Origin: Ilumatobacteraceae bacterium
Lineage (GTDB): Bacteria; Actinomycetota; Acidimicrobiia; Acidimicrobiales; Ilumatobacteraceae
DNA length: 35,422 nt
Direction of reading: 5' to 3'
NCBI GenBank assembly: GCA_021299715.1
Contig: JAJTEL010000012.1
Coordinates: 1-35,422 of the forward strand
Below the pieces are notes generated by a model. It made no database searches. It worked only from the letters and a program-made list of their open reading frames with translations, and was not told the origin of the DNA. This document shows positions 3,090 through 35,422 of the stretch, one piece after another; the stretch's first letter is position 1; each line of letters begins with the position of its first letter. A program made the position numbers and the translations under genes.

Positions 3090-7542
<4,453 letters not shown>

Positions 7543-7546
<4 letters not shown>

Positions 7547-8397
7547 AGTTCAAGTGCCTCACGAAGTGTGGCGGCAATGTCGGACGGATTCACCGGGTTG
7601 AAGTATTCGCCGGTTGCAACTTCTACACCCGCTATGTAACGCGGCAAGTTCGTTGCGCGCCACGGGGACACAATTTCCATATTCAGCCATGCATCGGGCC
7701 AATCGCTTGCCGCTCGTGGGGCCTGATTCCACCACATCATGTACGGCGGTGGTGCGTCGAACGCGTGGCGAAGTGCAGAGAATGTGTGGCGAAGTACGAC
7801 ACCTAATGACGCACATTGATCATCGGTTAACGATGGCAAGTCAGCGATGCGTTGTTCGGGAGCAACTCGAAGCGAAACCGGGTACACAGAGGCGTATTCG
7901 GTCCACACTCGCCATCCGTCCATCTCTAACACGAGACGATCGCCGGGGTTGTCATCTGGTTGCCACTGCGCACGCAACTGTTGTGCTGGGCGTTCAGGAA
8001 CGTTCGGAAACGCGTAGATCTGTCCGTGTGGATGGGGAATGGTTGCACCAATTTCTGCTCCACAATTTTCAAAGATGACAACGTGCTCGCCGTGTGGCAA
8101 TTTACGAAGTTCCACAGTTCTTTCTGCCCACAGATGAACAAGTTCATGCATATTGCGCAAACTTAAAGTGGCAAGAGATTCGTTGTGCTCTGGTGAATAC
8201 AGCACTACTTCGCAATAGCCCTCGTCTAACGAAGGCCACCTATTGGGAAAACTACGAACTGTGTAGGGCTCGGGTGCTTCTAGTCCACCAACACAGAATG
8301 GGCAATCAGACGATGGCAAGTTTGGTCTGTTTTGTCGTTGCGTCACAATGTGCACCACCGTTCCGGTGTGCGGATCTATGCGTACTTCGTGTGTCAT
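7543..8397 (-). CDS. galT: Galactose-1-phosphate uridylyltransferase (short form)
   Basis: A 284-aa HIT-superfamily enzyme that transfers UMP from UDP-glucose to galactose-1-phosphate. Visible are the zinc-site pair Cys32/Cys35 (CPFC), FPNRWPSL, His71 in SPEHNES and the active-site HPHGQ with catalytic His124. It is about 60 residues shorter than E. coli GalT, with a shortened N-terminus and a compact C-terminal HIT repeat, but every recognised catalytic element is kept. Its ATG overlaps the alpha-galactosidase stop by 4 nt (ATGA) and its stop overlaps galK. UDP-galactose 4-epimerase (galE), needed to close the cycle, is not in the window. Confidence 0.93.
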
Positions 8398-10526
8398 GGG
8401 TGCACCACGCGTTCAAGTCGAATAAGGAATGACGACTCTGGCAACAGCGACGGCATGGGTAATCCGACATGACCCAACACGCGCGCATCAAGCGTGGTGC
8501 TGTCGTTGTGAACCCACTGTGGAAGCTGGCGGTGTAATGCCCAGCGCGGAGGACCCAGATGAACGACAGAGACGCGGTAGTGAACCGCACCATCAACGGG
8601 AAGCCGAAGCGGTGCTGAATGATTACTAGGTCCACTGCGCAGTCTGCTGACACAGAACAGTCCTTCGTTTCCGTCATCGGAGAGAACACCACGAATATCG
8701 ATGGTGTCGTCGGGGTGGTTAACTCGTATGAAGTGACCCGAATGAAGGAAATTTCTGTGTTCTTTATAGAACTGAATTGCGTCGCGAAGACCGTCACGTT
8801 CTTTGTCGGTCAAGGTGAGCAGGTTCCATTCCACTCCCAGCCATCCGAAAAGTGCGGTTGTTGCACGAAATGACAGTGCATGCTTGCGTCCCGTGGTGTG
8901 GCACGTAGGCGAACCGATGTGGCTTCCCAGCATTTCGGGCGGGATGAATGTGGTGAGCCCCTTTTGAATTTCCAATCGATCGAGTGCATCAATGGAGTCA
9001 CTGGCCCAGAAACGCTTCACGTACTTGGCAACGCCCATGTCGATACGGCCGCCGCCAGACGCACACGATTCAAACTGAACCTTGGGGTGGGCCGCTGTGA
9101 GTCGTTCAAGTAGTTCATAGAAACCTGCTGTCTGTGCGTGCGAGGCACCGCCTATGAGGGGTCTGTTGTGGTCCCACTTCACATAGGCAATGTTGTTTTG
9201 GCTGAGCAGGGTGTTGATTTTGTCGAACAGATACTCGCGAACATCGGCGCGCGAAAGATTGAGAACTAACTGATTGCGGCCCAACAATGGGTTCACAAGG
9301 GTTCCATCAAGTGCCCATTCAGGGTGCGCGCGATACAGATCGCTATTGGGGTTCACCATCTCTGGTTCAAACCACAGTCCGAAGTCCATTCCTAACGACG
9401 TGACATGAGAGATGAGTGGTGACAAACCGTCTGGCCACACCGTTGCATCGACCCACCAATCGCCTAAGCCGGCAGTGTCATCGCGTCGACCGTGAAACCA
9501 GCCGTCGTCCAACACAAATCGCTCCACACCAACATCGGCCGCAGCAGTGGCGAGATCTTTCAATGTGTCGAGATTGTGCTTGAAGTACACGGCCTCCCAT
9601 GTGTTGAGAACAACGGGTCGCTTGTTTGTGTGCGCAAGTGATCGAACATGACGGTGGAAGTTCTGTGAAGCGCCAGATAGACCAGCGGTAGAGAACGACG
9701 CAACCACATCGGGCACGGAGTATGACTCTGCGGGTTCTAGAACTAGTTCGTTTGGTTGAAGCAGTTCCCCAACGTGGATGGTCTTCAGTGTTTCCGTGAT
9801 GCCGTCACACTGAATACGGAAGTTGCCACTCCATGCAAGGTGAACTCCCCATACATCACCACGCTGTTCTGTGAAACCAGGAGTACCTGCAAATACCACT
9901 CCAAGTTGCTCGTGCGATGTGCGCCCCGTGCGATTTTCAATACTGACCTTTGATCGCTCCCACGGCGTGCGTTGTTGTACTGCTTCCATTGCGTGACGAC
10001 CACCAAGAGTGAGTACTACGCCTGCATGGGAACCAACAGGAATACACAGTGACGCCGCATTGATGGTGAGTGGCGTATCGCCAGTATTGGTAATTCGCGC
10101 TGATGCAACGAGCGCATTTGACGAGTCGAGTTTGACGATGAGATCAATGGAAACTCCATGCTGCTCGTCATGCAGTGCAAAAGAAGATGCGTTATTGACC
10201 ATCGCTGGAGCGCTTGACGCTTTCAGTGTGTGGTGCGCGAACGAAAAGGAACAGGTCAGATTCAGTGGAAGGTTCTTTCCATGACGACTGGCCTCTAGAC
10301 CTGGCAGACCTGTCCAGCCCTGTGACGGTAGGGGGAACACACCGGGCACAACTTCGGTGTCGAGCCCGCCCCCCATGACGCCCCGCGAGAGAACTGATGC
10401 GTCGATGTGTACGTCGCCAAGTGAGACGCCGAAGTACGCGATGTAGAGAACACCATCACGGGTTGCAAACACCACACTGGTGTCGTTATTGAAGAGGTGG
10501 TCAACCACCTGAATGTCCCCGCTCAT
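8394..10526 (-). CDS. Alpha-galactosidase, GH36
   Basis: A 710-aa GH36 enzyme, the normal length for the family, releasing alpha-linked galactose from melibiose, raffinose or galactosylglycerol-like substrates. The N-terminal beta-supersandwich (about 1-300) precedes a TIM barrel with NTWEAVYFKHN, FVLDDGWFHGRRDD, FGLWFEPEMVNP and YVKWDHNRP (nucleophile Asp452). ESCASGGGRID and WASDSIDALDR (acid/base Asp510) follow. No signal peptide, so it acts in the cytoplasm on imported sugar. It heads a coupled set with galT and galK (4-nt overlaps). It begins 25 bp after the stop of the sulfite reductase gene on the same strand, so readthrough from the siroheme operon is possible. Confidence 0.94.
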   Translation of the reverse strand: MSGDIQVVDHLFNNDTSVVFATRDGVLYIAYFGVSLGDVHIDASVLSRGVMGGGLDTEVVPGVFPLPSQGWTGLPGLEASRHGKNLPLNLTCSFSFAHHTLKASSAPAMVNNASSFALHDEQHGVSIDLIVKLDSSNALVASARITNTGDTPLTINAASLCIPVGSHAGVVLTLGGRHAMEAVQQRTPWERSKVSIENRTGRTSHEQLGVVFAGTPGFTEQRGDVWGVHLAWSGNFRIQCDGITETLKTIHVGELLQPNELVLEPAESYSVPDVVASFSTAGLSGASQNFHRHVRSLAHTNKRPVVLNTWEAVYFKHNLDTLKDLATAAADVGVERFVLDDGWFHGRRDDTAGLGDWWVDATVWPDGLSPLISHVTSLGMDFGLWFEPEMVNPNSDLYRAHPEWALDGTLVNPLLGRNQLVLNLSRADVREYLFDKINTLLSQNNIAYVKWDHNRPLIGGASHAQTAGFYELLERLTAAHPKVQFESCASGGGRIDMGVAKYVKRFWASDSIDALDRLEIQKGLTTFIPPEMLGSHIGSPTCHTTGRKHALSFRATTALFGWLGVEWNLLTLTDKERDGLRDAIQFYKEHRNFLHSGHFIRVNHPDDTIDIRGVLSDDGNEGLFCVSRLRSGPSNHSAPLRLPVDGAVHYRVSVVHLGPPRWALHRQLPQWVHNDSTTLDARVLGHVGLPMPSLLPESSFLIRLERVVHP

Positions 10527-28192: not shown

Positions 28193-28627
28193 TTACTCGT
28201 GCTCCATGAACTTGGAGTTCAGTTCATCCATTCCTTCGGCGAGTTCAAGAGTCTTATTGAACAGTCCATCGAGTAGAGCGTTCCATTCGTTCTGGGCGGC
28301 ATCTTGATCGTCGGCTTCATCACACGCATGCGCGCGAGATTCAATGAATTCTCGCGAGACCATTGACGCAACGCGTAGTGCATCAAACGTTGGCACCAGT
28401 ACTGGGCCGTTGCATTGAACAACGCTGTGAGGGGCAAGAAAGATAGTGACCGTCTTTGTTCCCTCTGTGCCGACCAGCAATGTGCCTTCTGGACTGCGTC
28501 GCACCAAATTCATTTCGTGTGTCATGTCGCGAAGAAGCTCGGGGGTAATCCCAGCGCCGTTGTTCAGTTCTTCCAATAGCTCTTCGCCTTGTTCAAAGTC
28601 AAAGCGCAGCGATTCATCTGTGGACAT
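28193..28627 (-). CDS. Unknown 144-aa acidic protein of the pentapeptide/zincin operon
   Basis: Not recognised. The 144-aa product is strongly acidic (SLRFDFEQGEELLEELNNG at the N-terminus; DEADDQDAAQNEW and LELAEGMDELNSKFMEHE at the C-terminus), with a central beta-rich core (GTLLVGTEGTKTVTIFLAPHS). No signal peptide or membrane segment. The ATG at 28627 is preceded by a near-ideal AGGAGA at 28631-28636, which settles the start; upstream in-frame codons are not used. It is the third gene after the pentapeptide-like and zincin genes (79 bp gap). An immunity or adaptor role is conceivable but unsupported by any motif. Confidence 0.7.
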   Translation of the reverse strand: MSTDESLRFDFEQGEELLEELNNGAGITPELLRDMTHEMNLVRRSPEGTLLVGTEGTKTVTIFLAPHSVVQCNGPVLVPTFDALRVASMVSREFIESRAHACDEADDQDAAQNEWNALLDGLFNKTLELAEGMDELNSKFMEHE

Positions 28628-28706
28628 GTTTCTCCTATTGCACGTGACTCCATAGTAGAAACGCCTACGGTCGACCGACAAGTAAACGAGAGCATGCCAG
28701 TAATCG

Positions 28707-29600
28707 TCAGACCAAGTAGACGGGGAGCTTTTCTTTTGTTTTTTTCCCAGCCTGGGTGAAGTAGAGGTCTCCATCTTTCCCTTCGAGTTGAGATCGGTAC
28801 AGCATCAGTGCGTTCAATCCGATGACGCGGCTCATCCCTTCGTGTGTGCCATTGCCTACTTGGTAATCGCTAAGAAGTTGAGATTCAGATTGCTGAAACG
28901 TTCCGATGGTGGTTCCTGCATGAGTACGACTGAAGTCAACATCGCTATAACCCGATGGCTGGTGTTCGATGAACGAACGGACAAATTTCTTCGCACTTTG
29001 GTCGGCCATACGGTAGGCGTAGGCGTTGCACACCGCTTCTTCAAGTTGGCTATATGGAAGATGGCGACGTGAGTAATTGAGCCAGAGCATTGGCGGGCTG
29101 CTCTTCGTCGCGTGTGCCATCGTCGTCTCCAACGTGAGTACTGCGCGGTCAATAAGAAAATGACATGTCTCGTGGTTCTGGAGAAAGTAACGAGCAATGC
29201 GATATGCGTCGTTAGGTGTGGCGCCTTGACGACCGAAAAATGAACCCTCAGTCAGTAGTCCGGCGCGGGTAATGAACACGCCCCATTTGCCAGTGCTGCG
29301 GAACGAGAGATACCACGCGAGGGCGTCACTTGGTTCTGTTGGGCCTTGTCCGTTGTCATCAGGCATTGGTGCCGATACACCCGACTTCTTACCGCCGTTA
29401 CCGCTACCGCCTTTCCCGCCAGATCCCAGGCTCGTGGCTAGTTCCGTGAGCTGTTCGAGAATTTCAGAATCGGGTTGGGTAGGGAATGGTCGCGCGCGCT
29501 CCAGATCAGAACTGGACACACGTTCGCGTATGGGAATAGGAATCTCCTGAGGATTTAACGGTTCCCAAGGAATTGGATTGCCAAGGTTGAATTCACTCAT
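28707..29600 (-). CDS. Putative HExxH zinc metallopeptidase
   Basis: A 297-aa cytoplasmic protein. Residues 1-90 are Pro/Gly-rich and disordered-looking (a GSGGKGGSGNGGKK stretch). From about 91 a folded domain begins (SDALAWYLSFRSTGKWGVFIT). It contains HETCH (His143, Glu144, His147), a classic zincin motif inside a helix. Forty-odd residues later comes LEEAVCNAYAYRM (Glu187/188, Asn192), resembling the Glu-x-x-x-Asn-x-(F/Y)-A third-ligand helix of ImmA/IrrE-type peptidases. Family membership is not certain. Its ATG overlaps the pentapeptide-like gene's stop by 4 nt (ATGA), so the two are made together. Likely activity: cleavage of a specific protein, perhaps on a signal. Confidence 0.7.
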   Translation of the reverse strand: MSEFNLGNPIPWEPLNPQEIPIPIRERVSSSDLERARPFPTQPDSEILEQLTELATSLGSGGKGGSGNGGKKSGVSAPMPDDNGQGPTEPSDALAWYLSFRSTGKWGVFITRAGLLTEGSFFGRQGATPNDAYRIARYFLQNHETCHFLIDRAVLTLETTMAHATKSSPPMLWLNYSRRHLPYSQLEEAVCNAYAYRMADQSAKKFVRSFIEHQPSGYSDVDFSRTHAGTTIGTFQQSESQLLSDYQVGNGTHEGMSRVIGLNALMLYRSQLEGKDGDLYFTQAGKKTKEKLPVYLV

Positions 29601-30751
29601 TTTGTTTCCTCTTCTTCATTGCCATTGAATTCTTTGATCTCGTTCATTTCTCCTCCGTCATCACCATCTTCTTCATCTTCATCAATGTCCCCATCATCCG
29701 CTGAGTCTTTAGGTGTTGGGTTTGGATCATTAATAGGTGTAAACCCGGCATGCCATTTCGTGTCATCTGAATAGGCAGGATTCACAATTGACAGATTCGT
29801 TGGAAAGACAAAACGGAAATCGCAAAACTCCCAATAAGAATCTGAGATGGTTGTATCTACAATCTCGCAACTGCTGAACTTGGCAAAACGCAGTCGCAGA
29901 GCACTGGCGTAAAGATTGTAGATGTGCGTATCTTTAAAGGTCGTTTCATTCCAACCGACGCTCTGGAAGTGTGAACTCAGAATGACACACATATCAAGGT
30001 CGCTCTTGTACCAGTTACAGCGTTCCATCACTGTTCCGAAAAAAGTTGAATTGCTCCAAGTTGAGTTGGATGCATGGCACATTGAGAAACGTGCGGCAGT
30101 GAGGTCTGCTGAATGAATTCCCCAGTAACCAATCGAGGACGCGACAGAAAGCCAGGTGCTGCCGGAGAGATTGCTATTGAAAATTTTCAGAAAATCTGCG
30201 GTGGACTCTTCGATGCGCAACCAACGCATATCGCATGTCTTGAACTTCACCACATCCAATGAGGTGCGCGAGATGGTCAGGTCGGTGCAGTTACTGTCTG
30301 TGAACTCGCAATTGGAGAGTTTGCTCTTGATGAAGTGCGCTTTGCTCAGATTTACATGATTAAAATTTGCTTCTTCAAAGTCGGCCTCAATGTGGGCTTG
30401 CTGAAGCTCGGAAGAGAAGAAACGGACATCGGACACGCTTGTCTTTGTCATCTTCAACTTGGATGACTTAGTCCACATGAATGCGACTGAGGTCATGAGG
30501 CAGTCGTGAAATGACGCTTCAGAAAAGGTGCTCTCAGACATGTCTGTCAAGTTAAACAAGCAGTGCTTGAATGAGGCCTTGGAGAAGTCAGCGCGAATGG
30601 TCAGAAAACTGAAGTCAATCTCAGCAAATTCCATTCCTGTGTAGTCACCGTCGGAATGCAAACAAATTGAATCTCCGTTGGAGTTGGTTACTACGTAGCC
30701 ATCTGGCGTATACGCAGGAGTTTGCAGGTCGTGCTTGTTGTAGGGGTTCAT
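29597..30751 (-). CDS. Pentapeptide-repeat-like beta-helix protein with acidic tail
   Basis: A 384-aa protein with degenerate pentapeptide-type repeats through residues about 40-320: runs such as ADFSKASFKHCLF, EANFNHVNLSKAHF, SELQQAH and SADLTAARFSMC show the five-residue period with a central F/L and preceding small residue. These build a right-handed quadrilateral beta-helix that often binds proteins or mimics DNA. The last 50 residues are nearly all Asp, Glu, Gly and Asn. No signal peptide, no transmembrane segment. ATG 30751 has AAAGGA 4 nt upstream. First gene of the operon, coupled to the zincin (ATGA overlap). It may be the recognition or scaffold partner of that protease (inference). 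Confidence 0.78.
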   Translation of the reverse strand: MNPYNKHDLQTPAYTPDGYVVTNSNGDSICLHSDGDYTGMEFAEIDFSFLTIRADFSKASFKHCLFNLTDMSESTFSEASFHDCLMTSVAFMWTKSSKLKMTKTSVSDVRFFSSELQQAHIEADFEEANFNHVNLSKAHFIKSKLSNCEFTDSNCTDLTISRTSLDVVKFKTCDMRWLRIEESTADFLKIFNSNLSGSTWLSVASSIGYWGIHSADLTAARFSMCHASNSTWSNSTFFGTVMERCNWYKSDLDMCVILSSHFQSVGWNETTFKDTHIYNLYASALRLRFAKFSSCEIVDTTISDSYWEFCDFRFVFPTNLSIVNPAYSDDTKWHAGFTPINDPNPTPKDSADDGDIDEDEEDGDDGGEMNEIKEFNGNEEEETK

Positions 30752-31042: not shown

Positions 31043-31651
31043 ATGGACATCGAATACATGAGGTCTCTGTATCACCAGACCCATTACGAGTTTTTCTACC
31101 GTGCACTACCGGTGTACTTAAAGTCGGTCGCTCTTGACCAGATTTTGGAAGGTGCGCGTCAGGGAATTGGAAATCAATACCTGGTTGGCTTCTGGCGGGG
31201 CACAGCGAAAAACATTGCCGGACTGAGCATTGATAATCCGACGCCTCGAGAGGTGGACTTCACGCGCGATGATTTCACGATGATCGTTGTGGATGCGGCG
31301 CCGGGAATGACGATGCTGTTAATGACGGGTCCACCGCCTCGTGGTCCGGTGGAAGCCGGGTGTGCAGTTGCAATTTTCGAAGATGCCCAGCCGCTAGAGA
31401 CAATGCGTTATTTCACGAGTGAAGCCCCCATGGAACCGTCTTTTCCCTGGATGGTGGGCGAGTGGTTTGACAATGGAAGTCGAGCAAACTTGGGCGGGCT
31501 TTCAGATGTCAGTGCGCAAGGAATGTGCAACTTCGTTCTCAGTGTGATGGGCCTGCCGCTTCAGAGTCTTCCGCAAGTGGCAGCCCAGCAACCGACGTCA
31601 AAGCCTCAGAACTTCTTCAAAAACCTCAAAGACTCATTGTTCAAAAAATAA
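31043..31651 (+). CDS. Unknown 202-aa protein of the accessory island
   Basis: Not recognised. A soluble 202-aa protein without signal peptide. An N-terminal aromatic helix (YHQTHYEFFYRALPVYLKS) leads to a mixed alpha/beta core with hydrophobic strands (FTMIVVDAAPGMTMLLMTG and AGCAVAIFEDA). A Pro/Gln linker follows, then a basic C-terminal tail (NFFKNLKDSLFKK) that could be an amphipathic membrane-binding helix. The start is well set by the ribosome-binding site. It is divergent from the pentapeptide/zincin operon, with shared upstream palindromes, and convergent with the MotB-like gene (151 bp between, in which nothing was recognised). Could belong to either neighbouring module. Confidence 0.68.
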   Translation: MDIEYMRSLYHQTHYEFFYRALPVYLKSVALDQILEGARQGIGNQYLVGFWRGTAKNIAGLSIDNPTPREVDFTRDDFTMIVVDAAPGMTMLLMTGPPPRGPVEAGCAVAIFEDAQPLETMRYFTSEAPMEPSFPWMVGEWFDNGSRANLGGLSDVSAQGMCNFVLSVMGLPLQSLPQVAAQQPTSKPQNFFKNLKDSLFKK

Positions 31652-31802: not shown

Positions 31803-32327
31803 TTATTTGGTGTTGTCTTCGATATAGGGGAATAGTTTCAATTGAATGTCTCTAGGGCCAAGTTCAGTGGTGTGGCCAGTTTCAAAGAACGTCACTTTAC
31901 GCACTTTCTCCCATTGAGATGAAAGTTTTTCTTGTGTATTTCTAGCGTTGGTGTCCCCGGTCCTATTGTCAACACCGCGTGAACCGCCATAGATGATGAT
32001 GACGCCGAAGTGGGAAGTTCGTATTTCGGATTTGGCAATTTCGTTCTCTAGGCGTCCTATCAGCGACTTTGCTGATAGACCCACACCGTTCGGCACTATG
32101 ACCTCAAGTGGGTCGGAGTTGAATCCAGTATTGCCTGAGCCATCGCCTGCATCGGGAAGAGTTGTTGAAGATGCTCGACACTCATCAGAAGACTTTTGGG
32201 CCCCCTCACAGGGGTCGGACGTCTTTACCGCTGACGCCGCGAACAAAATCATTAGCACAAGCGAGAGGTCCGCAAATAGCCAGCCTGCACGGCTAATGAG
32301 AGTCTTTGACGCCTTCTTAGTTACCAA
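31803..32327 (-). CDS. MotB/ZorB-like single-pass membrane protein
   Basis: A 174-aa protein with a short basic cytoplasmic end, one transmembrane helix at about 15-34 and an extracytoplasmic domain. The helix entry W-L-F-A-D-L-S-L-V-L aligns with the W-x-x-x-x-D pattern of MotB, ZorB and ExbD, placing Asp20 where those proteins carry the proton-conducting aspartate. The outer part has two nearby cysteines (40 and 50), a linker, and a C-terminal alpha/beta domain (FGVIIIYGGSRGVDNR to KLFPYIED) that is OmpA-like in size but lacks a clear peptidoglycan motif. Start is TTG 32327: no other start exists before the helix, and it has AAGGA 8 nt upstream. It overlaps the preceding gene by 11 nt. Confidence 0.68.
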   Translation of the reverse strand: MVTKKASKTLISRAGWLFADLSLVLMILFAASAVKTSDPCEGAQKSSDECRASSTTLPDAGDGSGNTGFNSDPLEVIVPNGVGLSAKSLIGRLENEIAKSEIRTSHFGVIIIYGGSRGVDNRTGDTNARNTQEKLSSQWEKVRKVTFFETGHTTELGPRDIQLKLFPYIEDNTK

Positions 32328-33504
32328 TGCCGTTGTCCTTCAAGACTGCCGCGATATCTCTATTGACTGCGACGAAACGTTCAGAGGCTTGCTTCATCTC
32401 TGCCACGCTGCGGCCAATTTCAATAGTTGCACTTGAAATATCTTGCGCGATTTCACGCACAGTGAGTAGTTGAGCTCCGCGATCGTCAATGACGTCGAGA
32501 ACTTCACTGAGACGTTGAGCAATAGTTGCCGAGGAGTTGACAGCCTCGGAGAACTGACGTGCCGTATTGATAACTACCTTATTTGCACTTTCTACCTGTG
32601 AAATCAGTTGTTCAGCGGCGTTCGCAATGTTCACCGCAGTTTGGCCGATTCTTGAAGCGTCTTTCTCCGCAGTTCCGAGATGATTGTTCGCATTGGCCAT
32701 GAGCACTTGCATCTCCTTCATGCTCTGAGTGCTCCGCTGGATTGCTTGATCTGCATTTCGAAGAGAAGATTCGAGATTAACAATTGGTTCTATTGCGGTT
32801 GAGAGTCTTGAACCTACGTCTCCCATCGTTGTTGACGCGACCATGAGACCGTCAGTGGTTTTCGAAACCTGCTGAATCATATTTGATGCCTCGTGCACCG
32901 TGGCTGTGATTGTGGTTAATGCAGACTCCAGCTCTCGAGCGGCTGCAGAGATTGTTTTTGTGAACTCTTGCGGCGTCAAAACGCGAGTTTGCGCAAGGTC
33001 AAACTGAATTGCAAAAAGCGCATCATTAAGGTCTTGCGGAATGTCTTCAAGTTCGGTGTCATCAGTGATTAGGTCAAGAACAATCTGCATCAGGAGAAGT
33101 CCACCAACGAATAGAGCAATCAGTAGTCCAACTGACTGGAGGGTGTGACCAGAATAAGAGCCCTCTTGCCCAGTCCAGTATGCAATCAAACTGACGCCAT
33201 CTCTGATGTTTGAATCGTTTGCAAATGAGCTCAGTACATCTCTTAGTTCGTACCATGTATAAGCAACAGGAGCGAGGTACAGCCCACCAAGCAGGGCTCG
33301 AAAGATTGAGAAAATCCTGTTGAGCAATGGCGGAAGTGAAGAATCGGATCTGGCCTGGAACTCGCGTCGAATATCAAGAAGGCTGAGAGTGGGACGTTTC
33401 TTCTCATCTCTGAGCATTTGGGCAAGCTGGCGAGCAAAGGTGGCGCGTGGAGAAGGCCGCTTACCGGCCCACGACTCTATTTTCTCAATTGCTGACAAGT
33501 CCAT
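32317..33504 (-). CDS. Two-TM membrane protein with long coiled-coil tail (MotA/ZorA-like role)
   Basis: A 395-aa protein. Residues 1-60 form a charged cytoplasmic region. Two transmembrane helices lie at about 65-85 (IFSIFRALLGGLYLAPVAYTW) and 124-146 (SVGLLIALFVGGLLLM), joined by a loop of about 38 residues. From about 160 to the end runs an Ala/Ser/Thr/Gln-rich heptad region predicted to be a long cytoplasmic coiled coil. It lacks HAMP and the chemoreceptor hairpin tip, so it is not an ordinary MCP. Co-translation with a MotB-like gene and the long tail recall ZorA, but only two helices are clear. ATG 33504 is fixed by AAGGGGGA at 33515-33522. Confidence 0.68.
   Translation of the reverse strand: MDLSAIEKIESWAGKRPSPRATFARQLAQMLRDEKKRPTLSLLDIRREFQARSDSSLPPLLNRIFSIFRALLGGLYLAPVAYTWYELRDVLSSFANDSNIRDGVSLIAYWTGQEGSYSGHTLQSVGLLIALFVGGLLLMQIVLDLITDDTELEDIPQDLNDALFAIQFDLAQTRVLTPQEFTKTISAAARELESALTTITATVHEASNMIQQVSKTTDGLMVASTTMGDVGSRLSTAIEPIVNLESSLRNADQAIQRSTQSMKEMQVLMANANNHLGTAEKDASRIGQTAVNIANAAEQLISQVESANKVVINTARQFSEAVNSSATIAQRLSEVLDVIDDRGAQLLTVREIAQDISSATIEIGRSVAEMKQASERFVAVNRDIAAVLKDNGIGN
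32336..32340 (-). promoter_or_regulatory. Shine-Dalgarno sequence supporting a TTG start
   Basis: AAGGA on the minus strand, 8 nt before TTG 32327 and inside the end of the coiled-coil gene. It supports the rare start and the 11-nt overlap. Confidence 0.55.
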
Positions 33505-33514
33505 TTGGCTTATA

Positions 33515-33522
33515 TCCCCCTT
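33515..33522 (-). promoter_or_regulatory. Strong Shine-Dalgarno sequence for the coiled-coil membrane gene
   Basis: AAGGGGGA on the minus strand ends 10 nt before ATG 33504. It favours this start over the codons at 33624 and 33648, which would run into the divergent nuclease gene. Confidence 0.6.
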
Positions 33523-33547
33523 GATTCCTTGAGAGTAGTCTGAGGTC

Positions 33548-35422
33548 GTGTCGCAGTCAGAATCCGATGATGTAGCAAAGGGTGATTTTTCTCGTCTGCT
33601 TCTACTGGTTGATATTGCAAACATTCGCCCTCGGTCAATCAAGAACAAGAAACGGTTTCAAGCGAATTTTGGGATGAAATTGCCCTTGTTCAGCAAGACC
33701 AAATATGAACCCACATGCTTTGCGTTCATTGACCAGTGTCTCTTTGATTTAGCTCGATCGGCCCCTGGTGCAGTCATAGTCAAATACGCAGACTTTGGTC
33801 TAAAGAGTCAACTCGTGGGTGATGACGGCGAGGAACTGATTCGGAGGAATTCACTTGATGATTACGATTCCGACAAGATTTTTATAGTCGGCACATCTAA
33901 GGCCGATAATGCGCTACTTACTGCGAGTTTTGAAGTCGGTGGCTCCATCATCAGTCAGGATCAATTTGCAGACACCGAATATGCGGAGTTGTGGACTGAG
34001 AGCACTCGGCTCTTTGTGTATTCATACAACGAAGAGAGCGAGCAGTTTGATTTCCTAACGAGAGAAGGATTGAGCCTTCAAACGTGGTGGCAAGACGAGA
34101 ACAGCTTTGTCTCTGGTGATTGGTTAGCCAGCGACGAGTATCTAGAAGTCGAGGTTCGACTCCGCAATCAAGCGAAGCAAGCCAATTGGCAGTGGATCAC
34201 AACACCTCTCGTTCATAATCCAGAGATTCCTGTCGAGGTATACGAACGTATTGAAGCCACATCGAGGGAGAAACGTCGTCAGGCGAGAAAACGTTACGCG
34301 CACCGTCCGAAAAAATCTTTGGGTCGACAAAGAGAAGTCTTTGTTGATCAGGGCGCCGCCGATCTTGAGACGTACGAGCCATTCCTTGACCCTGATGGAA
34401 ATGAACTTACTGGAGAGACGTTCAGAAGAAAACGGCGTGTTAACGCTAAGCGATCTGCGCACGCACCAAAGAAATTTTTTGGGCGACAACGAGACGTTTT
34501 TAGTGACGAAGACGTATCAGATATGGACGTAAATGATCCTCTCTTGGAGTTCACGTTTTCTGAACCCAGTCGTAGTCAATCTGTGTGCTACCTGCTCGCG
34601 GATGATTTTCATGGCATGCGGAAGAATATTGGCAATCGCGTCACAGTTGCTGGTCGAGTCGTTCTCGGCGAAGGAAAGGTCTGCCTTCAGTGGATTCCTG
34701 GAACTGAAGCAGTCGAAGTTGTTAATCATCCGAACATTGATGCGGACATCGGAACTGCATTTGTTCAGCTTGACGGAGTCCTAGAAGTACTCGGAAATTC
34801 CATTGTCCTCAGGACAGATGACGACGAAATGTTTACTGTCGTAACTTACGCTCACATACGTGAAGAACGGAACGCCCAAAAAAGAGAATCTCGAGTATTG
34901 CAAGAGACGGAAATGCGCAAATGGGCAGTGCCAAGTTTCATTGACTCCGTTCAAAATCTTCGGACACTGCGACATTTGTTTAAGCCTGCAGTTCACGCAG
35001 ATGACGACAAGGTAGAGGGCTCCATATCTTCAGACCGGTTTACCGAGGTGGATCGCAGTGGTATGTATTCGGATGTTGACGAGATAATGCCCGGGGCCGT
35101 AAGCGACAAGAATTTTGGGATACCCACGTCTTCGGTCAATTCGGTAGAGCCCGCAGGCGTTCCCCCGGTTGAAGACCTTGACAACAAAGATGACTCATTT
35201 CGAGAGCACAGGCGCTTGCCGGCTGACAATGAGAATACGGTTCGTGATTTGCGAAAAACTACAGGCACTCCGCCAGATTCAGGTAAGCAAGAAAACGTCA
35301 AGAATGTTGAACCCGTATCGCCGGTGGAAATCGACGGGGATGTTTTTGTAAAGGATCGACCCGTCGATGAAATCAAAACGAATCAAGCTTTTCTCAGGAG
35401 GCGAATCTTGGTTGTTGGAGTT
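33548..35422 (+). CDS. NYN/Zc3h12a-type PIN-domain nuclease, partial (3' end outside window)
   Basis: An open frame of at least 625 codons running off the window end. Residues 17-145 form a PIN-like NYN domain: strand LLLLVDIANI with Asp22 and Asn25, a middle KYADFG strand, Asp120 in KADNALLTASFE, and SIISQDQFAD with Asp138 and Asp142. This is the acidic set of Zc3h12a/NYN metal-dependent ribonucleases. Two basic repeats follow (240-267 and 293-320, each containing KK..GRQR.VF), then a beta-rich segment (about 360-420, VTVAGRVVLGEG) possibly of OB type. A long acidic linker ends at a basic-hydrophobic FLRRRILVVGV, which may begin a membrane helix. GTG 33548 (GAGG 5 nt upstream) is needed to include Asp22; ATG 33674 would delete it. 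Frequent AGA/AGG codons. Confidence 0.72.
   Translation, partial: MSQSESDDVAKGDFSRLLLLVDIANIRPRSIKNKKRFQANFGMKLPLFSKTKYEPTCFAFIDQCLFDLARSAPGAVIVKYADFGLKSQLVGDDGEELIRRNSLDDYDSDKIFIVGTSKADNALLTASFEVGGSIISQDQFADTEYAELWTESTRLFVYSYNEESEQFDFLTREGLSLQTWWQDENSFVSGDWLASDEYLEVEVRLRNQAKQANWQWITTPLVHNPEIPVEVYERIEATSREKRRQARKRYAHRPKKSLGRQREVFVDQGAADLETYEPFLDPDGNELTGETFRRKRRVNAKRSAHAPKKFFGRQRDVFSDEDVSDMDVNDPLLEFTFSEPSRSQSVCYLLADDFHGMRKNIGNRVTVAGRVVLGEGKVCLQWIPGTEAVEVVNHPNIDADIGTAFVQLDGVLEVLGNSIVLRTDDDEMFTVVTYAHIREERNAQKRESRVLQETEMRKWAVPSFIDSVQNLRTLRHLFKPAVHADDDKVEGSISSDRFTEVDRSGMYSDVDEIMPGAVSDKNFGIPTSSVNSVEPAGVPPVEDLDNKDDSFREHRRLPADNENTVRDLRKTTGTPPDSGKQENVKNVEPVSPVEIDGDVFVKDRPVDEIKTNQAFLRRRILVVGV

What the first reader, a model, noticed from the sequence alone, without database searches (positions are those of the whole stretch)
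31803..35422. Candidate new PMF-linked defence module: MotB-like + coiled-coil membrane pair divergent from a NYN nuclease
Seen: a two-TM protein with a roughly 230-residue coiled-coil tail is co-translated with a one-TM protein carrying a MotB/ZorB-style transmembrane Asp. Their divergent neighbour (43 bp between starts) encodes an NYN/Zc3h12a-type PIN nuclease with extra domains. Known: in Zorya, ZorA (long coiled-coil tail) and ZorB form a proton-driven motor that signals to cytoplasmic effectors (ZorC/D, ZorE or ZorF/G). Inference: here the sensing pair may control an RNase-type effector, a combination I do not know as a described system. Caveats: only two TM helices are clear in the A-like subunit, and the nuclease gene is incomplete here.
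Basis: partly seen in the sequence, partly recalled or inferred. Interest (0 to 1): 0.85.

Follow-up and report, generated by a model that had tools for sequence, protein, structure and literature searches.

The report
Motor-like membrane pair with nuclease partner
Three neighbouring genes, two building what looks like a tiny ion-driven membrane machine with a long internal tail and one encoding a probable RNA-cutting enzyme, travel together as one accessory unit, resembling the known anti-virus system Zorya without being part of its family.

Summary
The window carries B (31806-32327, -), A (32320-33504, -) and, 43 bp away on the other strand, gene N, cut by the contig end. The same three genes in the same divergent order recur in a second species of the genus (27/33/22% identity) at an unrelated site, where they form a clean insertion flanked by an 18-bp direct repeat; in 7 of 10 stretches read at that site the two flanking genes are directly adjacent. 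In 32 genus genomes N is found only in those two, the only two with an intact tailed A. B has a transmembrane Asp kept in 27 of 27 rows covering the helix; its periplasmic part is modelled, weakly, as OmpA/MotB-like. A has two TM helices and a long helical tail. N has an NYN-type acidic signature with correct spacing but no profile or structural confirmation. Tail-less distant relatives of the pair sit beside guaA in the genus without a nuclease; a tailed pair in Kitasatospora sits with vWA and PP2C genes. It fails the Zorya membrane-domain tests, yet plausibly works like Zorya: a wall-anchored ion channel whose tail recruits or triggers a probably membrane-anchored nuclease. Defence against phages is inferred only.

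The parts
31803..32327 (-). B: 174-aa membrane protein, one N-terminal TM helix (16-34) with invariant Asp20, linker, periplasmic domain about 70-170 modelled as beta-alpha-beta-alpha-beta-beta (possibly OmpA/MotB-like)
32317..33504 (-). A: 395-aa membrane protein, about 60-aa N-terminal part, two TM helices (64-82, 125-143), Pro79, Trp84 and Trp110 invariant in the 6 rows aligned, 245-aa coiled-coil-like tail; its stop overlaps the B start by 11 bp
   Evidence: a longer TTG start at 33648 would overlap N and was not used
33505..33547 (.). 43-bp divergent gap between the A and N starts (47 bp in the second species)
33548..35422 (+). N: NYN-type nuclease-like domain (about residues 14-145; D22, N25, D120, D138, D142), a second conserved stretch (about 361-417, OB-like by eye only), long linker; truncated by the contig end at ...RRRILVVGV, where the complete relative has a C-terminal TM helix
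28193..31651 (.). neighbouring accessory genes (193 aa; 297 aa with HExxH; 384-aa pentapeptide-repeat protein; 202 aa) between the folK-glycosyltransferase genes and the module; not part of the conserved unit

Best explanation
A self-contained, horizontally moving three-gene module. B anchors in the cell wall through its periplasmic domain and, with several copies of the two-helix A around it, forms an ion-conducting stator-like complex gated by B Asp20 (inferred from conservation and motif). The bundled A tails reach into the cytoplasm and recruit or switch on N, a probable RNase of the NYN/PIN type held at the membrane by a C-terminal helix (predicted helix in the relative, inferred for the window). 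A disturbance of wall or membrane, most likely phage attack, starts the complex and lets N cut RNA, protecting the cell or the population. Shown: gene order, recurrence, insertion unit, invariant Asp, tail, NYN signature. Inferred: ion flow, stoichiometry, wall binding, tail-to-N signal, RNA as substrate, phage as trigger.
Confidence: 0.45

Rival explanations
1. Wall- or membrane-stress signalling rather than phage defence: the A-B pair reports envelope state and N adjusts RNA decay as a normal regulatory response.
For: Tail-less A-B pairs lie beside guaA in the 5 genus stretches read (G003, G008, G011, G019, G000), and 24 of 32 genus genomes have a B-family match; the Kitasatospora pair lies with vWA and PP2C genes, a signalling context; G025 N carries a PASTA domain (Pfam E 6.7e-10), which in kinases senses wall material (recalled).
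Against: The tailed three-gene version is rare and was gained as a unit; a broken remnant of A and B lies in a third species (L016), as expected of accessory cargo.
Confidence: 0.25
2. Toxin-antitoxin-like or selfish mobile module: N is the toxin and the membrane pair restrains it, protection being a by-product.
For: Small self-contained insertion unit with a nuclease, flanked by a direct repeat; NYN/PIN domains are common toxins (recalled).
Against: N is on the opposite strand, not in an operon with the pair; N is over 560 aa with several regions; two membrane proteins as antitoxin would be unusual (recalled).
Confidence: 0.15
3. A true but highly diverged Zorya subtype.
For: Same logic: tailed membrane subunit, Asp-bearing subunit with a possible wall-binding domain, nuclease-like partner; weak hits to ZorA models (window A E 0.0018; G025 A E 1.6e-4 to NCBIfam ZorA_1 and 0.0092 to ZorA_4; G025 A E 4.8e-5 to PADLOC ZorA2).
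Against: In A these hits cover only residues after the second helix, and SMC, JetC, DruC and other coiled-coil models hit the same part; no ZorB hit; two TM helices in A; no MotA/ExbB domain hit.
Confidence: 0.1
4. N is not a nuclease: the signature is chance or marks a catalytically dead domain used as scaffold.
For: No profile or PDB sequence match; hhalign with the host NYN protein covers only 38 columns, E 0.062.
Against: The acidic positions keep exact spacing in two proteins of 22% identity; 2 and 1 of 20000 shuffles carry the pattern; the host PF11977 protein also continues with what looks by eye like an S1-type stretch.
Confidence: 0.12

Closest known systems
Zorya anti-phage system (ZorAB plus ZorE, ZorCD or ZorFG)
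   Same: Two co-translated membrane proteins, one with a long cytoplasmic helical tail, the other with a TM Asp and a possible wall-binding periplasmic domain, next to a nuclease-like gene; accessory distribution.
   Different: No ZorA membrane-domain or ZorB match; two TM helices in A; the partner is NYN-type (probably RNA) instead of HNH or helicase, divergently transcribed and probably membrane-anchored.
GldL-GldM (PorL-PorM) motor of type 9 secretion
   Same: A-type subunit with two TM helices and a cytoplasmic part, B-type subunit with one TM helix, 5:2 complex (PMC10202324, passages).
   Different: That paper places a critical acidic residue in the second GldL helix; here the conserved acidic residue is in B and the second A helix has none. 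GldM has a long periplasmic shaft of four domains; no nuclease. The PDB sequence hit to PorL/GldL lies in the coiled-coil part (E 0.0061).
MotB / ExbD
   Same: TM Asp in the same motif position (that ExbD's Asp is functional is recalled); MotB periplasmic structures are among the matches of the B model.
   Different: Helix-level similarity only, over 28 and 17 columns; the partner A is unlike MotA and ExbB in sequence.
NYN/PIN RNases of the Zc3h12a type (PF11977)
   Same: Acidic signature and spacing as in the host's own PF11977 protein.
   Different: Not detected by the Pfam model; longer stretch between motifs; extra conserved stretch, and a PASTA domain and C-terminal TM helix in the relative.
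Tail-less A-B pair of the genus, and the Kitasatospora A-B pair
   Same: Related membrane core with the same Asp, Pro and Trp.
   Different: First: no tail, no nuclease, beside guaA. Second: tail present, but vWA and PP2C genes in place of N.

Membership tests
Zorya | ZorA with MotA/ExbB-type membrane domain (by sequence) | tested here: not met
   PADLOC and NCBIfam ZorA hits match only tail residues of A; no similarity to E. coli MotA or ExbB by hhalign. Fold of A not tested.
Zorya | ZorB model match | tested here: not met
   0 PADLOC families for window, G025 and Kitasatospora B; 0 Pfam and NCBIfam families for the window B.
Zorya | Long cytoplasmic A tail | tested here: met
   245 and 252 residues with helical periodicity, 0 of 2000 shuffles each.
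Zorya | Known effector gene (ZorC/D, ZorE, ZorF/G) next to the pair | tested here: not met
   PADLOC: no Zor effector among 7 proteins at 28-35 kb nor for G025 N; G025 flanks are GDT1 and MarC. Beyond the window's contig end nothing is known.
5:2 ion-driven motors (MotAB/ExbBD/TolQR) | Conserved TM acidic residue in the B subunit | tested here: met
   27 of 27 rows covering the helix, 30 loci (rows found with a profile built from 7 of them); aligned with MotB and ExbD Asp.
5:2 ion-driven motors (MotAB/ExbBD/TolQR) | A subunit related to MotA/ExbB | tested here: not met
   hhalign E 0.37 and 0.4, aligned pieces meaningless; sequence only.
5:2 ion-driven motors (MotAB/ExbBD/TolQR) | 5:2 assembly and ion flow | not testable with these tools
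   No complex prediction or experiment available.
OmpA-like / MotB periplasmic domain | OmpA-like fold of the B periplasmic domain | tested here: inconclusive
NYN / Zc3h12a RNases | Acidic catalytic signature with correct spacing | tested here: met
   Both N proteins; pattern written after seeing these proteins and the host PF11977 protein.
NYN / Zc3h12a RNases | Profile match | tested here: not met
   PF11977 does not match N in either genome at E<=10.
NYN / Zc3h12a RNases | PIN-like fold | tested here: inconclusive
   Model pLDDT 30.6; no fold search made with it.

The most novel reading that the evidence does not exclude
A distinct class of motor-gated immunity in which a minimal two-helix, wall-anchored stator with a coiled-coil tail, unrelated in detectable sequence to Zorya, triggers a membrane-tethered NYN RNase; it belongs to a sparse A-B family that also has tail-less members without nuclease, suggesting that tail plus nuclease has been joined to stator-like pairs more than once.
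Probability: 0.3. Interest if true: 0.82.

Novelty: new variant of a known kind. Interest (0 to 1): 0.62.

Why it matters
Zorya is the studied example of an ion-driven membrane machine that unleashes a nuclease. A second design with the same layout, without detectable sequence kinship and with a probable RNase, would show that the principle is general, and the tail-less pair in the same genome offers a natural control for what tail and nuclease add. It would also put a name to a rare membrane pair that no Pfam or NCBIfam family above cut-off covers.

Tried and rejected
Zorya membership: rejected on the membrane domains (above). Looking for more copies: class-wide long-A profile, 2 of 395 genomes, G000 itself and G413, whose match is a coiled-coil stretch in an unrelated region; phylum-wide B profile, only G000 of 396, with at most 8 candidates scored in the genomes listed, so weak; phylum-wide motif pattern, only G000 of 396, the reversed control pattern hitting 2 genomes; plasmids and viral contigs, none. 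The genome-contig scan matched 58 stretches and confirmed 2: L023, which has the contig length and the genes of G025 C11, and L024, Kitasatospora.

NYN by profile: Pfam, PF11977 and PDB sequence searches negative; hhalign weak. The RESC13 hit of the N profile (E 0.32) was taken as chance. AF2 of N failed. A as ExbB/MotA relative: negative. Hits of A to SMC, tropomyosin, chemotaxis receptors, spike proteins, JetC, DruC, DndD and others were taken as coiled-coil composition. I first guessed (note) that the G002 region held DISARM; PADLOC shows type II restriction enzyme and methyltransferase and a UvrD-type helicase. Unrelated rows in the B fold lists (DhaQ, DegV/FakB, chorismate mutase, TubZ) show how weak that evidence is.

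Hotspot idea for the window site: ten stretches at the glycosyltransferase gene were fetched (L016, L056-L064). I scanned with PADLOC only three that looked promising by eye, and all three had restriction-type hits (G002, G025 contig 4, G015); the other seven were not scanned and several contigs end early. This is no statistic.
Full report
What is there. The window is a complete 35422-base contig of an unnamed 1.9-Mb genome and ends inside the third gene. B (31806-32327) and A (32320-33504) are on the minus strand, the A stop overlapping the B start by 11 bp; N (33548-35422, still open) starts 43 bp from A on the plus strand. A has two hydrophobic helices at 64-82 and 125-143 and a 245-residue tail; B has one helix at 16-34. 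No Pfam family above its cut-off covers A, B or N of the window.

Recurrence. In 100 genomes (the window's own and 99 relatives, 32 of them of the genus) A matches G000 and G025 (E 6.7e-33), B matches 8 of 100 including G000, and N as a single sequence only G000. In G025 (L015) A (7979-9202) and B (9189-9719) lie beside a divergent 561-aa protein (6249-7931, minus strand) whose ATG is 47 bp from A. It shares with the window N the NYN-like start and a second stretch (collinear BLAST segments, E 0.018 and 0.017) and adds a PASTA domain and a C-terminal helix (542-560). The window N is cut at RRRILVVGV, where such a helix would begin. Identities are 27% (A), 33% (B) and 22% (N). The two-row N profile finds only these two genomes in 32 of the genus at E<=0.1; as it was built from them, what counts is the absence elsewhere. 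Several of these genomes are incomplete (62-97%).

Unit of gain. In G025 the three genes lie between a GDT1 and a MarC gene (Pfam). A MarC match was found in 22 of 32 genomes; I fetched 10 besides G025. In 7 of these 10 (G012, G029, G005, G008, G028, G013, and contig 6 of the window's own genome) the two genes are directly adjacent, 17-19 bp apart; in G011, G002 and G015 the surroundings differ or were not read clearly. The insert in G025 is bracketed by an 18-bp repeat at 6193-6210 and 9767-9784 with one difference, 3574 bp apart. Four empty sites (L065-L068) have one related copy at this place, 13-15 of 18 identical; in the more distant L069, L070 and L072 no ungapped match exceeds 9 of 18. 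So just these three genes moved as one piece, with no recombinase gene inside. The repeat pair is one of 15 short families reported in that stretch; its position at both ends is what makes it notable. At the window site the right flank is missing; four accessory genes to the left have no match (tblastn E<=1e-4) in ten stretches fetched at the same glycosyltransferase gene, some of them short.

Kin of the pair. A B-family profile matches 24 of 32 genus genomes. A short, tail-less A (174-223 aa as called) was found by motif in 25 of 28 loci scanned, two of them the same gene. In the five genus stretches read (G003, G008, G011, G019, G000) this pair lies near a GMP synthase gene; in G058, another genus of the family, it follows cytochrome-oxidase-like genes (by eye). 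A tree of 25 B rows puts the window, G025 and the G015 remnant together (support 87/73; one origin in 91% of 200 bootstrap trees), apart from 21 rows of the other pair; branches are long and the place of the Kitasatospora row is unsure. G015 (L016) holds a shortened A (tail part, 31.6% to G025 A over 187 residues) and a B that ends early. Kitasatospora (L024) has tailed A (8628-9977) and B (9974-10483) followed by vWA and PP2C genes, a gene without Pfam match, and a Sir2 gene.

Nuclease. N carries V-D-x-x-N-I and D-x15-[ST]-x-D-x3-D with the spacing of the host's own PF11977 protein, found through the family search. Shuffles carry the pattern 2 and 1 times in 20000, and in 398 scanned ORFs only N and PF11977 proteins do (6 rows). 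No profile or structure supports it further; hhalign with the host protein aligns 38 columns at E 0.062.

Defence links. PADLOC gives no family for window B and N or G025 B; G025 A hits ZorA2 (E 4.8e-5) and DruC in the tail, and G025 N hits PD-T4-6 (E 1.5e-5) over its PASTA region. None of these covers a membrane domain or the NYN part.

How it probably works, and what is inferred. In Zorya, ZorAB form a 5:2 motor-like complex with a bundled cytoplasmic tail; wall binding, tail and ion flow matter for function, and ZorE, a nickase, is recruited by ZorAB (PMC11890865, abstract and passages). The present layout has each element in another form, so the likeliest reading is a wall-anchored ion-driven complex whose tail controls a membrane-held RNase. 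That the trigger is a phage is an inference from rarity and modular gain. A stress-signalling role is the main rival, given the tail-less pair and the Kitasatospora context.

In print. Searches of the paper library listed no paper whose title or abstract start describes this combination; I saw listings, and passages of PMC11890865, PMC12505986, PMC9389320, PMC10853773 and PMC10202324 only. Subscription papers are mostly absent from the library.

Noticed in passing
window 28193-30751: Three-gene minus-strand run next to the module: 193 aa, 297 aa with an HExxH motif (by eye), and a 384-aa pentapeptide-repeat protein (Pfam E 1.1e-19); no match in ten stretches fetched at the neighbouring glycosyltransferase gene.
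   Followed up: partly
window 31043-31651: 202-aa plus-strand protein between that run and B; no Pfam or PADLOC match.
   Followed up: partly
L055 6994-8162 (window genome, contig 3): Tail-less A-B pair near GMP synthase and riboflavin genes (the latter by eye), without nuclease; B-family matches in 24 of 32 genus genomes. Function unknown.
   Followed up: yes
L024 8628-14288 (Kitasatospora): Tailed A-B pair followed by vWA, PP2C, an unassigned gene and Sir2: a possible signalling version of the pair.
   Followed up: partly
L016 784-7483 (G015): Remnant with shortened A tail and early-ending B, beside a 351-aa protein, a 1093-aa UvrD-like protein and a coiled-coil protein.
   Followed up: partly
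L058 681-13267 (G002): Type II restriction enzyme and methyltransferase and a UvrD-type helicase, with two large proteins (1103 and 925 aa) without Pfam or PADLOC match: possible unnamed defence cluster.
   Followed up: no
L015 6249-7931 (G025 N): A PASTA domain lies between the NYN-like part and the C-terminal helix, so it would be cytoplasmic if the helix is a tail anchor; unusual for PASTA (recalled).
   Followed up: no
L075 1057-2271: Host protein with PF11977 domain, an S1-like stretch (by eye) and a Lys/Ala-rich tail, probably housekeeping.
   Followed up: no
L023: The public record is titled Bifidobacterium breve MAG; not checked.
   Followed up: no
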